In this document: positions 2,142-14,700 of the stretch, piece after piece
Position numbering within the stretch: the stretch's first letter is position 1
Layout of the letters: the number at the start of each line of letters is the position of its first letter
Source of the DNA: Dioszegia crocea
Lineage: Eukaryota; Basidiomycota; Tremellomycetes; Tremellales; Bulleribasidiaceae
DNA: 64,000 bases
Assembly: GCA_001600615.1 (NCBI GenBank)
Contig: BCKK01000004.1
Location: forward strand, 1,103,316-1,167,315
Reading direction: 5' to 3'
Program-made: the position numbers and the translations under genes
Notes under the pieces: model-generated
Database searches by the model: none
What the model was told of the DNA's origin: nothing
The model's input: only the letters and a program-made list of their open reading frames with translations

Positions 2142-5100
2142 ATGTTCCAAGGGACCCTCGCTGATCGTCTAAAAGCGGCTGTGAATCAGCTCGAGGCGAC
2201 CGGCACATCTCTTCAAGCTCGCGCACAAGCAGGATTAGCCAATCCCCCTTCATCACAATCTCCAACTACATCTTCACCTCAGCTTCCCTCGACCGCTCGG
2301 GATGTCCCATTACCCGTCTCTCCTCGAGACTCCAAGAGTCCGATTTCAGGAGGAACAAGGGAAGATGTGAATGCGGAACGCGCTCTGAGCCCGAATCGAC
2401 CGGGCACGGCGACATTTACCCCTGGTAACCTTGCCGAAGGTGCACTCAGCGGTCTGAGGGGACTAAGAGGAGGATTCGGGTTCTCACGAACATCCCTTGA
2501 TGGCCAAAGGCCCGTTGTGTCGCCATCTACATCACCACAAATTGGGACTATGGGCGAGAAGGAGTTACAGGATATACATCATCCTCAAGCAGGCCCTTCG
2601 TCTAGCCCTAGATCAACATCACCTGCTCCCGCTCGTCTACTCCCTTCTGCGTCTTTCCAAATTGGGACGTCGTCAGATCCATCATCTGCGTCCGCAACGC
2701 CCCTCAGGCCTCGATCACCTGGACCCAGTCATCTCCGTACCTTATCCCACCCAAATCCGCCCACTCTCCCACCTCCGAATCCGGACGACCCGGCTTCATA
2801 TCCCCTTCCTCCATCGCCGTCAATTGCGCACAGTCCGCTATTAGCTCCTATGCCACAATATGCTGATCCGCTTGGGGCGTCGCCATTGATGCCTCCTAAG
2901 GAGGATATGGAGGTGCCGGATCTTGGGGTTCAGGAGGCGACTCCCGATATGGAGAGAGAATTGAGCGGATTGGGACTGGTGGAGCAAGCGGAGGAGACCT
3001 CAGAGGATCAGAAGAAAGATCAGGGATCTATAGAAAACGCGAAGAGGGATGAGGATGCTGTAGTCGCCCCGTCCACTGGTCCAGGTATGTCCAGCCGGGC
3101 TTATGGTGAGGTCAGTTGCTGACGGAGCTGCAGCTGGCGATACGTCAAACCTCCAAACCCAGATACTTGCTGCAGACAAGGTGTTGAGGGAGCTTACGCC
3201 TCTTGACGGGGGTATAGCAGACCCGCAGGCACTAGAAGATTGGGTACGGATGGTCACGGGCAAAGTCGGGATGATGGGGGATGAAATGAAGCGATTACAG
3301 GATAAGCTCAACTGTAAGTTGTGAGCCGCTCTGGTGCAGCATTCTTGCGTGCTTATATCCAGTGCAAGATTCTCGGATGGAGGAAGTCCGAGATACCCAC
3401 CGACTAGAATCAACATCCCAGACCGACCTCGTCACCAAGCTTCGCACCCAATTATCAACAGCCGAAACGAATCTGGCATCACGCATGACTGAACTGGCTG
3501 TCATTCCGCAACTACGCACCGACCTCGGCAAGGTACAGACCCAGGTCAAAGAGGAAGAGGAAAAGCGCACCAAGGCCATCTCCCTATTGAAGACTGTGCG
3601 GATGAAGCTGGTGAAGGCGGAGAAGGAGAAGGAAGAGGTTGAGCGTGATAGAGCTGAAGAGCGCGCAGAGAGGAGTCGGGCAACGGAAGAGGTCGAGAGG
3701 GTCAAAGCGGAGATGCAGCGGGAGGTCAGTCGACTAAGGCAGGGTTTTGAGCGGGAGCTGCAAGGTGTCAAGGAGAGGGGCGAGAGGGAGATGAAGGAGA
3801 AGAAGGGGGCATGGGAGTTGGAAATGATAACTACCAAGGTGAGTTCTGAGTTGTAACCGGAGTCTGAGTACTAAGATAGCAGGCTGCACATGCCAAGGAT
3901 ATCACAGCAAAGACGGTCATGGTGAATGGCCTCGAAGCCATCGTCAAGGAGCTCAGTGCGACGAAGGACGAGCAATTCCACACGATCCAAGCTCGGCAAG
4001 CTGAGGCTGAGACGGCCCGAGCGGAATCGGAAACTTTTGCAAATCGTACGAAAGAACTCGAATTCCAACTCAGGGAAGCCAATGAGCGCATCACCTTATT
4101 GGAAGATACACCACGAGCACCGGAACGAGGCCGGCCTCATTTCCTCGAAACTGCCGATCGGTTCAATTCCAGTCCGAGCCCTAGTCCATCTCGCCAGAAT
4201 TCCAATGGCGGTTCGTCAGCTTCCGAGGTCCAGCGTTTGCTTGCTGAAGCGGAAGCGCGAGCAGAGGCCAAACTCTCAGATTTGAGATTCAGAGTGCGGT
4301 CTCTGGAGAAGGAGAGGAATGAGCAAGAGGAGGAATTCGGACAGAAATTGCAAGAGAGAGTGTTTGAGCTGGAGAGACTGCGGAGGGCGATTCAGGAGAA
4401 GGAGGGGGAGATTGCCGAAGCTGATCAGCGGGTTGAGACGGAGAGGAGCAAGACGACAGCCGAGGTGGAAAATCGACAAAAGGTGGAGAAGGAGTTAAGG
4501 GGAATGATGGCTAGGCTAGAAGAGGTCAAAGAGGATGTGGCTACTGCCCAAGAGGGCGAGGTGAGTTGAAGATCCAGAACCCAAGTCTGCATGTCAGAGC
4601 TCGAACTTATTCTGTAGAAAATGGCAAAAGACGAACTATCTCAGCTCAAACTTCAACTCCAAACCTACAATGTCCAATTGGAAGACCAAAAACAAATAGT
4701 CGTCAATCTACGAACGGCCAACAAAACGCTTCGGGAGGAGATGCGGAAAGTTCAGTCGAGCGCGCAGTTAATGGAACGGTCGAGAAATCCGGGTGTGGGG
4801 TATTGGTCCGCGGCTCCAAGCGCAAACTCGGGGCCGAGTAGTGTGGCAAGTACGCCCACGACAGCATCAACGCCGGTGACGGAGAAGCCTCGGCAAAGTG
4901 TAGACGGGGCGGCGGTGTCGATAGCGACGAATGGCTCGAAGGGGAATGAAGAAGAAGAAGTCAATCTTGAAGTAAGTGGTTGTTCCTTCATCCCTCGCGC
5001 ATATGTTGGCGATCCTCCATCCTGGAGATGAGGCTGACTTGGCAGTATCTACGAAACGTCATTCTGCAATTCCTCGAAAACCCCCTGATGCGAAGACAAC

Positions 5101-5177
5101 TCGTCCAGGTGTTGGCCGTTATTTTACACTTCACACCGCAGGAGCTTCGGCGGCTGAACGCTAAGATTACAGCGTAA
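2142..5177 (+). CDS. GRIP-domain golgin (Imh1/golgin-245-like)
   Basis: Long coiled-coil tether of the trans-Golgi. GRIP domains bind Arl1-GTP. The N-terminal 300 residues are Ser/Pro-rich and disordered. Several exons of heptad-type Glu/Lys/Arg-rich coiled coil follow (3103-4841), and the last exon encodes the GRIP domain: YLRNVILQFLE, LVQVLAVILHFTPQE, ending NAKITA. The Tyr of the YLRNV motif corresponds to the GRIP tyrosine that contacts Arl1. Five introns are visible (near 3085, 3314, 3839, 4561 and 4973), each with a GT donor and a CTGAC or similar branch site. I chose the ATG at 2142 (MFQGTLADRL), which begins an amphipathic helix. An in-frame ATG at 2070 would add 24 residues. The gene is divergent from VPS20. 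Confidence 0.88.
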
Positions 5178-5488: not shown

Positions 5489-8400
5489 ATGTCCATCCTC
5501 TCCGCACTCTTTGGCTCAAAGAAGCGAGCCAAGAAGGCCACTCCTGCAAGATCTGGATCCGCGTCCCCTCCCCCTTCAGCTACCAAGCAGAAAGTCCGAG
5601 CGTCAAGCCCGACAGACCGACCTGGTGCTCCTAGTCGCTTTCGCTCTCTACGTCGGCGTAGCTCTGTCAACCCCTACGACACAGTACAGCGGCGGAATAG
5701 CGGAGATGCAAGTCGGAAGAAGGCTGCCGGAGGTTCGGGCGGGGAATGGAGGTTGCCTGACCTTGGCTTCGCGGGTGATGTCGCCGGGGACAAGGAGACA
5801 AAGTCAGGTCTGGGGCTTGATAATGTTGGAAGAGTCCCTACTCTGTCCCGCGGAGAACGGGGCAAGCTTGAGGCCGTCAGATTTGGAGCTGAGCAGATTG
5901 GAACGGTATGGAAAGTGCTCGGATCTGTTCTGCGGGATAGCGGTGAGTCTATTTTGTATGCGCGAGGGGTCCGTGCTGAACCTTCTCAGATCTACCTGGC
6001 AGCATCCTTGAGACCCTCCCGGCCGACCTCGAGGAGCAAGATCATGCTCTCCGCGCTTTATCAACGCTGGCGGCCCCGCCCGGCACCCTTTCAGACTTCC
6101 CCTCCATCACATCCCACTTCCCCTCTCCATCTTCAGCAGACGCATCGAACATATGGTCAGATCGTCTCCTCGACCTTGCCAGAAACGTCCCATCGCAAGT
6201 TATCGCTTCAACTCTGAAGTGGACGCTCCGCCGACTCCCATCACTCTCAGACACACCCCCAGCCTCGCCCCTTATGCCAACAGCAGTCTATGTCAAATTC
6301 GTCCAGGCCGAGCACGCTGCATCATATCCAAAAGACGCTTATCAGACCCTTTTGGTGCCTGAGCTCGCACGAGACGTCAGGCATGTCCTGCATGAGATCT
6401 TTGATGTTTGGGCGGCATTGACATCTCGAGCGGAAGATCGGTCCGGGCTAGGCGGGAGAATGTCCCTGTTGATGGGATGGTGGATCCTCAATCCAGGCGT
6501 AGGGAAGAGTGCGGGATGGGAAGGGATGTACGCGGCTTGGCGACTGGCAGCTAGAAGAGTGGAACATCTGTTCCTGGCTTGGATCAGGTAAGCCTCGCGA
6601 CTTCTCCAGGACGGCGGACAAGCTGACGCCACAGACATCAATCGACCACACACACTCTACCTACCCGGCTCCTCACACTAGTCGAGAAGTACCCCTTTGG
6701 CCACTCGGAGTACTCTGCCGAAACCTTGCCCTCGCCTCCCCCCTCCACCTTCACCCGTCGAACCCTACACCTGTCCTTGTTCACCGAGCAGCCCCTCTCC
6801 AAGTTGACCCTTTCGCCCGCCGACATCCTCCAAGCTGCACTAAAAGCAAACCCCGACGATGACTCCAGCTTGGGTATGTGGCAGGCGGTCTCATCTGCTG
6901 CCGGCCCGTCCGGCGAGACTGAGCCTGCCGTGGAGTCCTTGGTAGACACCGAATCGGCGACATTCCTCTCTCGGACCGGTCGAGGCTCCAGCGCCCAGCC
7001 TACAACCACCAAGATCTCCACCCCTTCCCGCCAGAGTAGCTTCTTTGAAGGTCGGCCGGACCCTCCATCCCTCAACCGTGTTCCGAGTAATGCCAAACTT
7101 CTCGACACCCTAGCGGAAGAAGTCGGCAAATTAGCCGAGAGCCATTCAACTGCCATCACCCTCCCTCGCCGACACTCTGTTGCCAAACTCCTCCTCCCCG
7201 AGAGCTCGTCGACATGGGATGACTTTACAAAATCTGGATTTGCCGAGGACAAAGATTCTGGTTTAAACCTCGCCTTATCCCCTTCTGCGTCAATCACGAC
7301 GTTCGCTTCTGCGACTCGTGATTCGACTGCCAGTCGAGCCAATGGCTGGACCGTCGTCCCTACTCCTACCGCATCACCAAGTCAGAAACCCTTCTTCGCT
7401 TCTGTTGTCAAATACTACATTGCCAAGGAGGAGATTGTCGACACCGACGACATGTTCATCGCCTTCACCGAGGATGGTCAACTTGATACATCCTCTTCGT
7501 CCAGATGGCCCATCTACACCCTCCTCCGATTGAAAGAACCATTCACCTCGGAGTCTAACGACGATGTAGTTGAAAGACTCCTAATCACCATCGAATATCG
7601 GGCTCCACCCACTCCCCCCCCCGCGACTCCTACCGCCATGGAAGCCACTCCTCCCCGATCATCATCACCCGGTGGCGAGTCGAACTTCCGCTTCGGCTCA
7701 TTTGGGTTCAAGCGCAATAGCTCCCGACCTGGATTCAGATCTCAGCTCTTTGGCTCGTCCCGCTCATTGAGCAAAGATGAAAAGAATGCGGACTTCATCA
7801 CTGAGAAGGATACAATCTACAAGAATGGGACGGAGAGGAGTGGGAACTTCGGAGCGAGCGTAGATGAGCTGGGTCAGTTGACGTCGAGGGCATCGGCGTC
7901 CGTGGTTTCACTAGGGTCTCCGGGAAAGAAGGCGAGGAAAGCTGTGCCGCTTTTAGGCGCGACGGCGGAGGCTCCAACCGAGGCAGCTACACCGGCCGAA
8001 CCTGTTGTCCCCGATCAATCAATCGAGGCACCGACAGCAGCTGTCAACTCCGAAGATGTTCCAGCTCCGTCGATGGCATTGACTTCAGGTCCATCGGTCG
8101 ACACCTCTCCCAGCGAATGGGTGTATGGGGCTGAGGGCGGTGCGCACGTCGTCTTCATCTACACGGGATCTTCTGGCCCATATGCCGGTAAACTTCTCCG
8201 CATCCGTAAAATCAGCAGACATCGAGGTGATCCGCTCGAGAGCAGCTCTGCAATCTGGCGTGATGAGCTTCTGCCACAGCTCGTTCCATCTCGCTTGCTC
8301 GTCGAGGCAGAGGGGGTCAAGGTCGATACGACATGGCTTGGGGAGCTATTAGCGAAGGCCGAAGAGGGGCGAGCGGATGAGAGGAAGGCGAACGGTAGCT

Positions 8401-11249
8401 TGGTCGACGAGGTGGGAAGTGAGCCAAGGGTGAGCATAATGGAGAACCTTCGGGTAGTTGAGGAGAAGTCGGCGGGGACCAGGGTTCTCTCGGTCGAAAT
8501 TAAGGTAAGCTATGACCTTGTTGTGATTTGTTAATCGGGAAGACAAAGGGCAGTAGCTGACTTTACAGCCTAAATGGGGTTTCCTCCCTTCAGCCGACTC
8601 GATCAGCCCGCCTGAAGCTGCAGCGATAAAATCCAAAATTGGCCGATACACCATGCATCAGCACTATCGCGGCATCACCTCGGAGAAAGACACATACGAC
8701 CCGCTTGATCTGTTCTCGGGCGATGAAGAGCATATCAAGCGTGCTCTCGTTGGGCTGTGGGGTATCTGGCGGGAGACAGGCGGTCAAGCCAACAGCTTTA
8801 GGGTGTTTGTTGATGGCAATATAGTCCATCCTGATGAGGTGGGTCTTCACATTGGGTAATGAATGTGACACTGACATGACAGGCCGACACTCAAGGAAGC
8901 TTGCTTCGAGTTACGGCCCCTATCCTCATCCCCCTTCTACGGAAATCCGACGTTCTCCCTGTCCTCCGCACGCTCCAGGCCAGCCTCGATCCTACGGACA
9001 TATCCGACCTCGTCCGTCGTTTCGCCGCCGCCCATCCCTCCACGCCCCTCTTTGACGAATCCGTCGTGCCGGACATTCAACCCTCGGAATTATCCGCTTT
9101 CGCCGCCAAATACCTCTCGACTACTCCAGATGTATCGCCAGAGTGGACGTTGCGAGAACGGATTATTGCTTATTCCCTCTCGGCGATATTCAAGGATTGC
9201 TCCATCATCATTCGAGCGGTCCTTTCGCCTTCGCCCGAAGATGGTACATGGGCCGTCGAGGAGGCAGGGTCGACGGTCAAGATGCTGGATCTGGATTTGA
9301 AGCCGCTCAAGATGAAGCATTGGGCGGAGCTGGATGAGAAGATTTGGAAACAATGGGCGGAGACCAAAGGCGGTGAGGGCTCGGCGAAGGTGGTTGCCGA
9401 GGAAGAGGAGGTAGCATCCACCCCGCACGCCGTGGAGGACGGGCATGCGGTCACTTCCTCGCAGGTCGAAGCGCCACGACTGAGCCTACCGGCGGAGCAG
9501 ACTGCTCCCGCCGGTCTGGCATCCTTCATCTCAATTCCGACTGTAGCTACACCCGGCGTAGGAGCTGAGCGGATCGTCCCTGGTGGTTTCCCCGGTATTC
9601 CCGACGTCCCTCTCAGCACTCCCGGTCTGGACGCTGGACCTAGCTCGGCCCACCCCACTCAGGCTGCTCCCGAACCCACTAGGAATTCGGACGTCAGCCA
9701 GGCGGCAGATGACTACTCGTGGCATCTGCAATGGTATGACGGTCTGGAGGATGCTAGCAAACTCTACTTTGCCCAGCAAGATCTTCAGGGGATGTTTGAT
9801 GTTCTGATGCCGCTCCATGCGATGGTCGAGCGAGTGAGTGACACCGTACTGCAGATAGATCAATGGGCGAGGCTGATAATTTTAGAGTCCTGAGACGGCG
9901 GCGCAAATGTCTTTTGCGGAAATCTATGGCAATGAGCTTCGGACTGCACGCCAGCTCATCCATAAGGATATGGATAGCAGTGAGAGGGAGCTTCAGTCGG
10001 CGTGGGATCTGTACTACTCAGTATGTTTCTCTTCCTCCGCTTCATTCGCTCGCTGACAATCAAGGTATTCCAACGTCTCAGTAAGAAGCTTCGATCTGTG
10101 GGCCTCGTGGCGCAGAGCCCTGTACTAGCGCGGCGAAATCAAAACATCGCCGGCGTGCCTGCTATTGCCCCTTCATCACCGGGAGTTAAGGATATACCGT
10201 CGGACACATCGCACACGGGCAACATCCTCTCGCCAGGCGCGTCCGCTGGTACAGAGTCTGCGAAGGCCGTTTCGGACGCCGAGGATAGCAGTCAACATGG
10301 CTCTACATCGGCGCCCGTGGCAACTTCACAGCAGGAAGAAGTAGAGAGCAAGGATTTGAGCGAGGAGAATGGGGATGAGTCAATGTACTCCTCGACACTC
10401 TCCACCCCACTCGCTCCTGGCGCTTTCAACTTCCCCGACACCCCCAGCAGAGCACTTCCGGTCAAACAGGCGCCATCAGCTGTCGAGACCTCGGCCGATG
10501 TACCCAAATCTACCCCTATCCCCCAATCTCCTACTACGATCGCCGAAACACATCCCATACCCGCCAGCACATCCCCTACACGCGCTTTCTCCCCTGCTAT
10601 CCCAATCGCGGCAGATACTGCAGGTCTTGTAGACCTCTCATCTGAGCCCGAAACCTCTTCTGCCGAATCAGCTTCCAGCTCGCCCGTTAAATCCCGATTC
10701 GAGCGGTCTTTCGCCCCTTCCCCTTCCCCCGTTCCCGAGACAACCGAGCCGAATCTACCTCTATCACTGGTCGACCTGACATTAACACCCATCGCCTTAA
10801 ACTCGCCTACATTCGGGACCGATCTGGTTGACATTGATACTGTGTCTATCCATTCGGGATCGTCAGTCACTGCCGAGACCATCGAGTCGGGCTCTTCAGT
10901 CACTGAAGAATCATCCTACTCGCCCTCGAAACCCTTCAGCAATCTTCACCTACCCTCCACTCCAGAAAGACGCGAAGGTTACGTCCCCTCTGCGCCCACT
11001 TCCATCCTTGGCGAGTCATCTGGAACTCCCACACAACGATCTTTCCCTAGCTTAGGGCCAATAGCCCTTGGCTTACCCATCATCACGCCCAGATCTTCAT
11101 CCCTGCTCTTGAGCGAATCATACCAGAAGGGTCCAAGCTCCCCGACCGGATCGACACATTCTACCCCTAGTCGACCAGAGAGGCGGCGGGTGGACTCTGT
11201 TCCAAGGACTCGTGCGGCGTCCAATGGGCCGGAAAGTCCGATAGGATAG
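5489..11249 (+). CDS. IPK1: Msb1/Mug8 domain - inositol-pentakisphosphate 2-kinase - FRB domain fusion protein
   Basis: Seven exons (5489-5942, 5990-6587, 6635-8504, 8569-8838, 8883-9833, 9886-10020, 10065-11249) give 1,820 residues with all phases closing. Residues about 115-400 match my recollection of the Msb1/Mug8 (DUF1708, RhoGAP-like) polarity domain: FVQAEHAASYPKDAY, GLGGRMSLLMGWW, VEHLFLAWIRH. Residues about 844-1215 are IP5 2-kinase, which makes phytate (IP6): WVYGAEGGAHVV, GKLLRIRK, EIK-PKWGFLP, RYTMHQ, YDPLDLFSG, LSAIFKDCSII and DLDLKPL, so the catalytic motifs are intact. Residues 1344-1434 are an FRB domain as in TOR: GLEDASKLYF, GMFDVLMPLHAM, AWDLYYSVFQRLSKKL. A 390-residue Ser/Pro-rich tail follows. 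The Msb1 end and the IPK1 start lie in one uninterrupted 1.9-kb exon, so these are not two genes. No PI3K-like kinase follows the FRB. The gene converges with RIF1. Confidence 0.85.
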
Positions 11250-11757: not shown

Positions 11758-14700
11758 CTATCGCCTCCCACCTCTCTCCCTCACCGCCCTCTCCTGCAAA
11801 TTGGCAGTCGCAGCATCCCTCAACTCGTTCACATGCTTCAACAGACTGATCACCCCATCAAAGTCCAAACTCGCCACCGCCGCCTTGGCCTTAGCCGCAT
11901 CCTCCACCATACTCAATATCCGCGCCTGCTGCGTCGTGCGTATCGGCGACGCATTGAGCAAAATAGCTTCCCGAGCCGGGGCAAGCCTGATAGACGCTTC
12001 CGACGCATCGTCATAACGACCCTGAGTCGGAATGGGAATGACAACTTCGACTTTGGCGTTCTTCGACCTTGGTTTTTGGCGGTTGGGTAAAGGGGATGGG
12101 TCAAGTTTGGATTTATGAAGTATACCACCGTGTGCAATCTTCTCCGCTCGGAGTCGATTGACCGTCTCAGGACTTGGCTCGGCAGGGACTTCTTCCTCGT
12201 CTTCTTCCTCGTCGTCGTCATCCTCATCCACCCGACCCTTGCCTCCCTGCTGCTCATCATCACTGACGACAATAGCGTCCGAGCTATCGCTGCCACTGTG
12301 CGATGACGTCCGCGATCTTCTCCTTGAGGGTTTAGAGCGTTTGGCCATTGGACGGTCCGAGTGGGGCTTCTTTGTCGATGAGGAAGGACGAGGGACCGGG
12401 TCGGATTCAGGGGCAGGGCGTTTCGAGGATGTTTTAGCGTAAAAGCCGGAAGCAGGGATAACTTCAAACCCAGGTTCATCTCTCCGATTAGGCGAAGAGA
12501 AGAATCCAAAGCTGGAAGCTTTCGTCAACAACCGGTTGAGAATCGATGGGGCTGCCTGTTCCGGTTCCGGGCCTGGCCTTCCCACCTCCTTGCCTTTCCC
12601 CTTATCGGGCACGACTCTAGCCTCGACAACCTCTACATCATCATCATCATCCTCCTCCGTCTTGTCTCCCTCGTCATCCTGAGAATCAGGAATGACAGTA
12701 GTGTTGACAGGCAAAGACTCCACATCCCTCTCGTCCAGCTTGACCCGCTTGCGCGACATCTCCGGGAAAGACTGGGTGGCGCCAATCAACCGATTGTTGC
12801 TTGGTCTTCGGGCACGTTTCCGCTGGTCCACCATCGCTGGCGGACCGAATACGTCATCGCTCCGCCTGATTTCGTCGGCGTTGTTCGACGACTCGACAGA
12901 GTCTTCGATTCGGACAGGGGAGGAAGGGGGGAGAGAACCGACGGGTAGCGGCGAGCCGAGTTGCTGCTCAGGCTGTTCCACCTGAATGGCGGCGATAGTG
13001 TCGTTGATGGGGAGAGCGGATGAATTGGAGATATCGGCATCGTAGTCTTGAGTAGACTCCGCCGGGCCATTGGAGATAAGGCTGACGGCCTCGTTCTCGG
13101 CGGCAGGATCAGAGGCGGGGACCAAAGCTGTGCTCATTGGACCCGCCACGAAAGACTGAGAGTGGGGGAACCGTCTTTGACCATCCGCCTCGTCCATCCT
13201 CTCGGGCTGCTTCAGACCCTTGACCTCAATTAAACCCGGCATGGCAGCCATGACTTCCAAGAGGAACTCTCGGACATCCTCTGACAGATCAAGATCAAGA
13301 CCTGCAAAGCCCTCGCGCCAGAATCGCTCAAAGCGGTTTATGACAATCCGGGACCCCGCGAGGGAGAGACGGGGACCGTACAGATCACTGTAGGTGTCTA
13401 GTGTCTGTCCGGTGGGTAGGATCTCACCGGCTGCGATGGCGCGAGAGAGGAGATCGAGGGCGGCGCAGTAGAACTGGTCTAGTGACAAAGCGAGGGATTG
13501 GGGGAGGATGATGGAGCTTCCGAGCCACATGTAGAGTGCGCCGCTGGTTTCGGAGTTCAACAGTTGCTGCGCAGACCACACGGGTGCTGAAGAGTAGGTG
13601 GTCGTCAGGGCTTGGATGAGGAGTTCGACGCCGGGTGATATGGCGTGCTCAACCTCGGGTGAGGGCGATTGAGAGTCGAGTCGGGGGTGGCTTTGGTGCA
13701 AAGCCGCAGCGACGAGTTTCAGCAGATCCCGAGGTAGATCTTCGAGAGCTGAGCTTGGCGCAGGAGGGAATAACTCGGTCACCATCGTTGCAAGACAGGA
13801 CGACCAGGCAGACGATGCGCTGCAAAAGTCAGTCAAGATTCTAACCAGTGGGTTCAATCTAGCTCACCTCGCCGTCATCTCATTCCCGAACGGTTTTTTG
13901 AGCTGCATTGCCACTGTATCCAGGCATCCACGACGGTCCTCCGATCCATCGATCGCGAGACGCAGCAGGGTCGCCCACGATGTGAGATCTGACAAAGCGA
14001 GGAACGCTGATATTGTCGCCTCACTGCGGAATGGAGCGACGAGGAGAGAATGCAGTAAGGCTGCGTGATCACAGTCGGCGTTTTTGACCGGATCTGCGAG
14101 GATGGAATGCTTGACAATTGTCTGCCATATGTCAAGTTGCATCGATGGATCCTGTGCGAATGTCGAAGGTAGCGCATCGGTGATATCGGCCAATAGTTGA
14201 ATACTATAAGGTGTCGATTCGCTCAGGTTGATCAACTTTTGGATGAGGCCGATAAACGCGGTCCGAGCGGGTGATGTCAGAGTGAGGGAGAGGGAAGGTG
14301 AACGAAGAAGAGCGGTGAGGAGGACGCAGCAAGGGGAGGATTCGCCATGTATGCCGGCACCGAAGACTGGGAGGGGAGAGTCGGAAGTGGAAGATGAAGA
14401 GGAGGGTTGGGCGGAAATCGTGTCTTGGAAAGCATTTGCGCCAAGGACATCGACGGCTATGTCGACAAGCTTGCCCATGATGATTGACCGAGTCTCGTCG
14501 AGGTCCAAGACGCAGCCTCGGGGGCTGAACGTGCCGAGGGGGAGGTATGTCGCCGGGTCAACGCCCCATATGGTCACCAAACGAGCAGTGATGGTTTTAA
14601 CGCCCTCGACGTACTTCTCGGGCTGTTCGAGCCGGACACTAGCGAGTGCGGAGAGGAGATTACCCCATATCCGTGTAATTTGGGATGGGATAACTGCGTC

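What the first reader, a model, noticed from the sequence alone, without database searches (positions are those of the whole stretch)
9708..10140. A TOR-type FRB (rapamycin-binding) domain outside any TOR kinase
Residues 1344-1434 of the 1,820-residue protein match the FRB signature blocks: GLEDASKLYF, GMFDVLMPLHAM-ER, SFAEIYGNEL and AWDLYY-VF-R-SKKL. Aligned to human mTOR from memory, the rapamycin-contact positions are kept: Leu1352 (2031), Ser1356 (2035), Phe1360 (2039), Trp1421 (2101), Asp1422 (2102), Tyr1425 (2105) and Phe1428 (2108). Thr2098 is Gln1418. As far as I know FRB modules occur almost only next to PI3K-like kinase domains of TOR. Here no kinase follows; the domain sits behind an inositol kinase. 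An FKBP12-rapamycin or phosphatidic-acid binding module on IP6 synthase would be a new link between TOR-type signalling and inositol phosphates.
Basis: partly seen in the sequence, partly recalled or inferred. Interest (0 to 1): 0.94.

Follow-up and report, generated by a model that had tools for sequence, protein, structure and literature searches.

The report
TOR's rapamycin-binding domain on IP6 synthase
In a fungus, likely a relative of Cryptococcus, the only gene found for the predicted enzyme that makes the signalling molecule IP6 also encodes a copy of the rapamycin-binding domain of the growth kinase TOR, which is predicted to dock IP6 synthesis to partners of the TOR pathway.

Summary
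It lies behind a whole IPK1 domain (214 bits) and a partial Msb1/Mug8 match (51.6 bits). No PI3K-like kinase domain matched in this protein; TOR and a TOR-like kinase are separate loci. One 951-bp exon encodes the end of IPK1 and the start of FRB.

The FRB most likely came from a TOR gene as genomic DNA: both its introns sit at the same codon and phase as in this genome's own TOR, seven residues are shared only with that TOR, and a tree groups the two (97/94). Of 61 proteins fetched, 23 have both Msb1/Mug8 and IPK1 domains and 39 have IPK1; 0 of those 39 match an FRB profile. Silent sites are saturated (4 of 19 fourfold sites match) while 51 of 99 residues match own TOR, so selection likely kept the domain.

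Likely role (inferred): a TOR-type docking cleft on IP6 synthase. No binding was tested.

The parts
5489..11249 (+). Msb1/Mug8 - IPK1 - FRB gene; exons 5489-5942, 5990-6587, 6635-8504, 8569-8838, 8883-9833, 9886-10020, 10065-11249 (1,820 aa)
   Evidence: Spliced by GT-AG sites, open throughout; no transcript data
6109..6698 (+). Msb1/Mug8 domain, residues 192-372 (partial profile match)
   Evidence: PF08101, 51.6 bits against a cut-off of 23.6, profile positions 46-224 of 423
8124..9341 (+). Inositol-pentakisphosphate 2-kinase (IPK1) domain, residues 848-1217
   Evidence: PF06090, 214 bits, profile 1-375 of 375; PDB chain 5xu6_A E 1.7e-94; only locus found in the genome
8883..9833 (+). Exon shared by the IPK1 C-lobe and the first part of the FRB
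   Evidence: Direct translation gives PF06090 (55.7 bits) and PF08771 (35.6 bits) in one open frame
9570..9629 (+). Left linker island, residues 1294-1313, shared with three relatives that lack the FRB
   Evidence: Motif scan and alignment
9717..10085 (+). FRB domain, residues 1343-1433, in three exon pieces
   Evidence: PF08771 85.7 bits; PDB matches; contact residues
9834..9885 (+). Intron inside the FRB, phase 0, after ER and before SPET; own TOR has one at the same place
10021..10064 (+). Intron inside the FRB, phase 0, after YYS and before VFQR; own TOR has one at the same place
10389..10445 (+). Right linker island, residues 1535-1553, shared with the same three relatives
   Evidence: Motif scan and alignment

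Best explanation
This gene encodes an Msb1/Mug8 - IPK1 - FRB protein whose FRB was likely copied as genomic DNA from a TOR gene and is predicted to act as a docking cleft that brings IP6 synthesis to TOR-pathway partners. Shown by sequence: the three domains in one gene model, one exon shared by IPK1 and FRB, intron positions identical to own TOR, kept contact residues, and no FRB in the relatives examined. Inferred: the segment landed in a variable, probably disordered linker and was then kept by selection as a binding domain. Inferred and untested: the cleft that in TOR takes amphipathic helices of TORC1 substrates, and FKBP12-rapamycin, binds the same kinds of ligand here, so that IP6, which mTOR itself binds, would be made close to TOR targets or regulators; FKBP12-rapamycin would occupy the site and release or redirect the enzyme.
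For: FRB 85.7 bits, E 2.8e-24; human mTOR FRB E 2.6e-28. Seven contact residues kept. Both FRB introns at the same codon and phase as in own TOR; chance of two introns falling on two given sites among 276 is 2.6e-5. Seven residues shared only with own TOR, against 0 or 1 shared only with any of the 23 other rows. Tree of 26 rows: window + own TOR 97/94. Fourfold sites saturated (4 of 19 match) with 51 of 99 residues kept. 0 of 39 IPK1 proteins fetched has an FRB, 31 of the 39 having a C-lobe with at least 150 aa of tail; in three relatives the flanking islands are 71, 72 and 81 aa apart, in the window 221. FKBP-type genes match at three places in the genome. Literature: the FRB takes amphipathic helices of p70S6K and PRAS40, InsP6 sits in the mTOR FAT domain (PMC7464330, passages); IP6 raises mTOR activity in vitro (PMC11782818, abstract); rapamycin lowers inositol phosphates in Chlamydomonas (PMC7672647, passage).
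Against: No binding, expression or localisation data. Only one genome has the fusion, so selection on the insert cannot be measured between species. The copy has lost 12 of 38 columns that are at least 90% conserved in TORs, and the retention of the conserved contact columns (5 of 5, against 21 of 33 others) is not significant (Fisher p 0.13). Its tree branch (0.82) is twice that of own TOR (0.42). T2098 and R2109 are changed, though own TOR has the same changes. The spliced domain was not modelled in 3D.
Confidence: 0.5

Rival explanations
1. Membrane tether: the FRB serves as a phosphatidic-acid or lipid-binding helix bundle that holds the Msb1-IPK1 protein at membranes of growth sites, with no TOR-pathway partner.
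For: The residues that PMC2997006 names for phosphatidic acid binding have their equivalents here: L1352, F1360, Y1425 (passages). The N-terminal Msb1/Mug8 match would fit work at polarity sites (recalled knowledge of yeast Msb1).
Against: R2109, recalled as important for phosphatidic acid binding, is Gln here. No lipid binding was tested.
Confidence: 0.17
2. Decoy: the spare FRB competes with TOR for substrate helices or for FKBP12-rapamycin and so tunes TOR, and the fusion to IPK1 merely supplies expression and solubility.
For: The cleft residues are the same as in own TOR at the twelve positions looked at, except one (Q1363 where own TOR has Ser).
Against: It was set into a single-locus enzyme gene rather than an independent short gene; no stoichiometry data.
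Confidence: 0.13
3. Passenger: a recent or neutral insertion of TOR DNA, still open but without a function.
For: One genome only; faster branch than TOR and 12 of 38 conserved columns lost.
Against: Saturated silent sites with 51 of 99 residues kept, open frame, two intact introns and kept contact residues do not fit long neutrality.
Confidence: 0.12
4. Gene-model artefact: the FRB exons belong to another transcript, or to an assembly error, and not to IPK1.
For: No transcript data; the fusion is known from one genome.
Against: One open exon spans the IPK1 C-lobe, the left island and the start of FRB; the right island follows in the frame of the last FRB exon; TOR itself lies elsewhere, on C1.
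Confidence: 0.04

Closest known systems
FRB domain of TOR kinases (PF08771; human mTOR, yeast TOR2, own TOR)
   Same: Profile match over positions 8-99 of 99, named contact residues, and intron positions of own TOR
   Different: No FAT, PI3K-like kinase or FATC match in the protein; sits 126 residues behind an IPK1 domain
Msb1/Mug8-IPK1 fusion proteins of Kwoniella, Cryptococcus and Cutaneotrichosporon (P0001, P0016, P0017, P0019, P0031 and others)
   Same: Same first two domains in the same order; 23 of the 61 fetched proteins have both
   Different: None of the 39 IPK1 proteins fetched matches the FRB profile
Ipk1 of Cryptococcus neoformans (CNAG_01294); solved IPK1 chain 5xu6_A
   Same: IPK1 domain, 5xu6_A E 1.7e-94 over the whole domain; in C. 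neoformans deletion shows Ipk1 to be the major IP5 kinase (PMC4817067, start of abstract, passages)
   Different: Described there as 415 aa with PF06090; no FRB or Msb1 domain in the passages seen. That 5xu6 is the C. neoformans enzyme is recalled, from no call.
FRB-like helical bundles of SMG1, Tra1 and DNA-PKcs
   Same: An FRB-like bundle other than that of TOR (PMC7464330, passage)
   Different: Those sit in the kinase N-lobe of PIKKs; here no kinase of that kind is present

Membership tests
FRB domain (PF08771) | Profile score above the curated cut-off | tested here: met
   85.7 bits against 24.7
FRB domain (PF08771) | Rapamycin-contact residues L2031, S2035, F2039, W2101, D2102, Y2105, F2108 | tested here: met
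   7 of 7 kept; T2098 and R2109 are Gln
FRB domain (PF08771) | Four-helix bundle fold | not tested
   The spliced protein falls outside the stated rule of the structure tool; about 50% identity to solved FRBs makes it likely
FRB domain (PF08771) | Binding of FKBP12-rapamycin | not testable with these tools
   Needs a binding assay
TOR kinase | FAT and PI3K-like kinase domains with the FRB | tested here: not met
   Pfam finds only Msb1-Mug8, Ins_P5_2-kin and FRB_dom at E 0.01 in the 1,820 aa; PF00454 in the genome gives no match at this locus
IPK1 (PF06090) | Profile over the whole domain | tested here: met
   214 bits, profile 1-375
IPK1 (PF06090) | Catalytic motifs EIKPK, R-x-x-MHQ, KDCSI, D-L-x-LKPLK | tested here: met
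   Present at residues 972, 1000, 1168 and 1200 and aligned with a solved IPK1; that these are the catalytic motifs is recalled
IPK1 (PF06090) | IP5 2-kinase activity | not testable with these tools
   Needs an enzyme assay
Msb1/Mug8 (PF08101) | Profile score above the cut-off | tested here: met
   51.6 bits against 23.6, but only profile positions 46-224 of 423

The most novel reading that the evidence does not exclude
Evolution has built a rapamycin-addressable IP6 synthase: by exon shuffling from TOR, this fungus gained a second, kinase-free docking site for FKBP12-rapamycin and TORC1-substrate helices on the enzyme that makes IP6, a ligand of TOR itself, so that TOR signalling and IP6 supply answer to one ligand and rapamycin acts on both.
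Probability: 0.3. Interest if true: 0.88.

Novelty: new variant of a known kind. Interest (0 to 1): 0.74.

Why it matters
The papers seen here describe the FRB as part of TOR, with FRB-like bundles in a few other PIKKs. A natural FRB freed from the kinase and, it seems, kept by selection lets one ask what the domain does by itself: which helices or lipids it recruits, and whether IP6, which raises mTOR activity in vitro (PMC11782818, abstract), is made where TOR works. Whether inositol phosphates act above, below or beside TOR is called unclear in a review of plant and algal work (PMC7672647, passage); here the two are joined in one protein. It is also a clear case of domain shuffling with introns as witnesses, and a hint that in such a fungus rapamycin may not act through TOR alone.

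Tried and rejected
FRB-only search among proteins of about 545-1730 aa: 37 candidates shared words, none at E 0.001. That search needs shared exact words and may miss distant FRBs, so it is weak evidence of absence. The IPK1+FRB searches (about 545-1730 and 1000-3185 aa; each scored only the nearly 8,000 candidates sharing most words) are better evidence; neither returned an FRB-bearing IPK1.

Retro-copy (cDNA) origin: rejected, since both introns are present at the TOR positions. Donor = TOR-like kinase on C2: unlikely, as its FRB match lies in one open frame without those introns and is far more divergent (branch 8.9). Ancestral FRB lost in the others: less parsimonious, given 0 of 39 and the closely spaced islands in three relatives, but not excluded. 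Rows dropped: one search used 39 of the 61 fetched proteins (the other 22 carry FRB and PI3K-like kinase domains). Of the 39, five gave no C-lobe match (P0006-P0008, P0014, P0015) and three more have tails under 150 aa (P0012, P0037, P0057). Of the 31 left, two are named as Rhizoctonia (P0036) and a plant (P0052), and the unnamed metagenomic rows are of unknown species. TORs of other Tremellomycetes were not in the FRB tree.

Special protection of the conserved contact columns: tested, not significant (5 of 5 against 21 of 33, p 0.13). DNA similarity between the window and the TOR locus beyond the first FRB piece: one real match only, 72% over 113 aligned positions.

Literature: one held paper has both 'FRB domain' and this kinase; its passages treat them apart (PMC7672647). 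Msb1 together with this kinase or Ipk1: 0 papers. Searches meant to find FRB outside TOR listed nothing that by title or abstract start reports it; one search showed 20 of 48 papers. Of those I opened PMC2997006 and PMC7464330 (passages), PMC2838846 (one passage) and PMC11836306 (no passage on FRB in the main text). Most subscription papers are not held.

The species was not identified; Tremellomycete is inferred from the nearest named orthologues (49% identity to Kwoniella shandongensis).

Full report
What is there. Seven exons between 5489 and 11249 splice with GT-AG introns of 44-64 nt into 1,820 codons. Pfam finds three families at E 0.01: Msb1-Mug8 (residues 192-372, 51.6 bits, profile 46-224 of 423), Ins_P5_2-kin (848-1217, 214 bits, the whole profile) and FRB_dom (1343-1433, 85.7 bits, E 2.8e-24). 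The exon 8883-9833, read straight from the DNA, matches both the kinase C-lobe (55.7 bits) and the first FRB part (35.6 bits); the 45-residue exon 9886-10020 matches FRB with 30.4 bits. So the join of IPK1 to FRB lies inside one exon and does not depend on a splice guess. No RNA data were available.

The FRB is TOR-type by sequence. It matches human mTOR FRB chains from E 2.6e-28 and yeast TOR2 at E 7e-21; identity is 46 of 93 to human and 51 of 99 to this genome's own TOR. The residues equivalent to L2031, S2035, F2039, W2101, D2102, Y2105 and F2108 are kept; T2098 and R2109 are Gln, as they are in own TOR. Position 2098 also varies among the other TORs aligned. The residues that PMC2997006 names for rapamycin resistance or interaction in yeast (S1975, W2041, F2048) and for phosphatidic acid binding (L1971, F1979, Y2045) have their equivalents here (passages).

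It is not part of a PI3K-like kinase. The genome search gives three FRB loci: C1 with PI3K-like kinase exons behind it (TOR), C2 with a divergent FRB (44.7 bits) and kinase exons (TOR-like), and the window. IPK1 matches at one locus only, this one (the tool scores only its best candidates). FKBP-type matches lie at three places; one, on C6, reads by eye like a small FKBP12-type protein cut by introns.

Where it came from. TOR on C1 has two introns in its FRB, after EK (before GPET) and after YYN (before VFQR), both phase 0; the window has introns after ER (before SPET) and after YYS (before VFQR), both phase 0. Two introns falling by chance on two given sites among 276 would have odds of 2.6e-5. 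In seven alignment columns the window FRB and own TOR share a residue that no other row has; with any of the 23 other rows the window alone shares none or one. A 26-row tree groups the two with 97/94 support; the window branch is 0.82 and the TOR branch 0.42. TORs of other Tremellomycetes were not in the set, so the age of the copying within the class is open.

Where it landed. Two searches gave 61 distinct proteins, 39 with an IPK1 domain. Twenty-three carry both Msb1/Mug8 and IPK1 domains, among them Kwoniella, Cryptococcus and Cutaneotrichosporon proteins; the fusion of these two is thus widespread there. A profile built from 24 TOR FRBs, with filters off, gives none of the 39 a score better than E 0.91, and the window E 2.6e-33. 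Thirty-one of the 39 have an IPK1 C-lobe with at least 150 aa of tail, so the place for an FRB was visible in them. Three metagenomic proteins (P0003-P0005), whose IPK1 C-lobe is 76-84% identical, carry the two linker islands that flank the FRB in the window. In them the islands are 71, 72 and 81 residues apart; in the window 221. Their starts, inside the domain, suggest single open frames from a bacterial-type gene caller; I infer this from the sequences and could not check it on DNA.

Selection. At codons with the same amino acid, only 4 of 19 fourfold sites match own TOR, so silent sites look saturated, yet 51 of 99 residues match. A long-neutral copy would not look like this. Against it: the copy has lost 12 of 38 columns that are at least 90% conserved in TORs, and the five contact columns among them, all kept, are too few to show special protection (p 0.13).

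How it would work (inferred). In mTORC1 the FRB cleft takes amphipathic helices of p70S6K and PRAS40, presumably in competition with FKBP12-rapamycin, and Rictor/Avo3 covers it in TORC2; InsP6 sits in the mTOR FAT domain (PMC7464330, passages). IP6 and IP5 raise mTOR activity in vitro, reversibly (PMC11782818, abstract), and rapamycin lowers inositol phosphates in Chlamydomonas (PMC7672647, passage). An FRB on the IP6 synthase would place it with the same helices or partners, beside TOR or in competition with it, and could make it a second rapamycin target. Rivals are a lipid tether, a decoy and a passenger. Only binding and deletion tests can decide.

Novelty. The domain and the enzyme are known; the combination was not seen in the paper searches made nor in the protein searches. 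I rate it a new variant of a known kind.

Noticed in passing
Orthologues P0001, P0002, P0016-P0031, P0034, P0035 and others: An Msb1/Mug8-IPK1 fusion is widespread in Tremellomycetes (23 of 61 fetched proteins), yet no held paper has both Msb1 and Ipk1. C. neoformans IPK1 is described as a 3245-nt gene for a 415-aa protein, so its gene model may deserve a second look.
   Followed up: partly
P0006, P0007, P0008, P0018, P0027: These orthologues also carry a precomputed RhoGAP domain (PF00620) besides Msb1/Mug8, which suggests that the Msb1 part is RhoGAP-like.
   Followed up: no
G000 contig C2, 114808-116547 (L003): A TOR-like kinase with a divergent FRB in one open frame (44.7 bits) and kinase matches beside it.
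   Followed up: partly
P0036, P0057: IPK1 is annotated next to a kinesin motor in Rhizoctonia solani and next to zinc fingers in Tilletia horrida: other fusions or gene-model mergers.
   Followed up: no
3880-5177: The upstream gene looks by eye like a coiled-coil protein with a golgin GRIP-like C-terminus; Pfam gives only a sub-threshold Med3 match (24.8 bits, cut-off 29.3) to one of two pieces scanned.
   Followed up: partly
11758-13863, - strand: Downstream open frame of 701 aa that converges on this gene; no Pfam match at E 0.01.
   Followed up: partly
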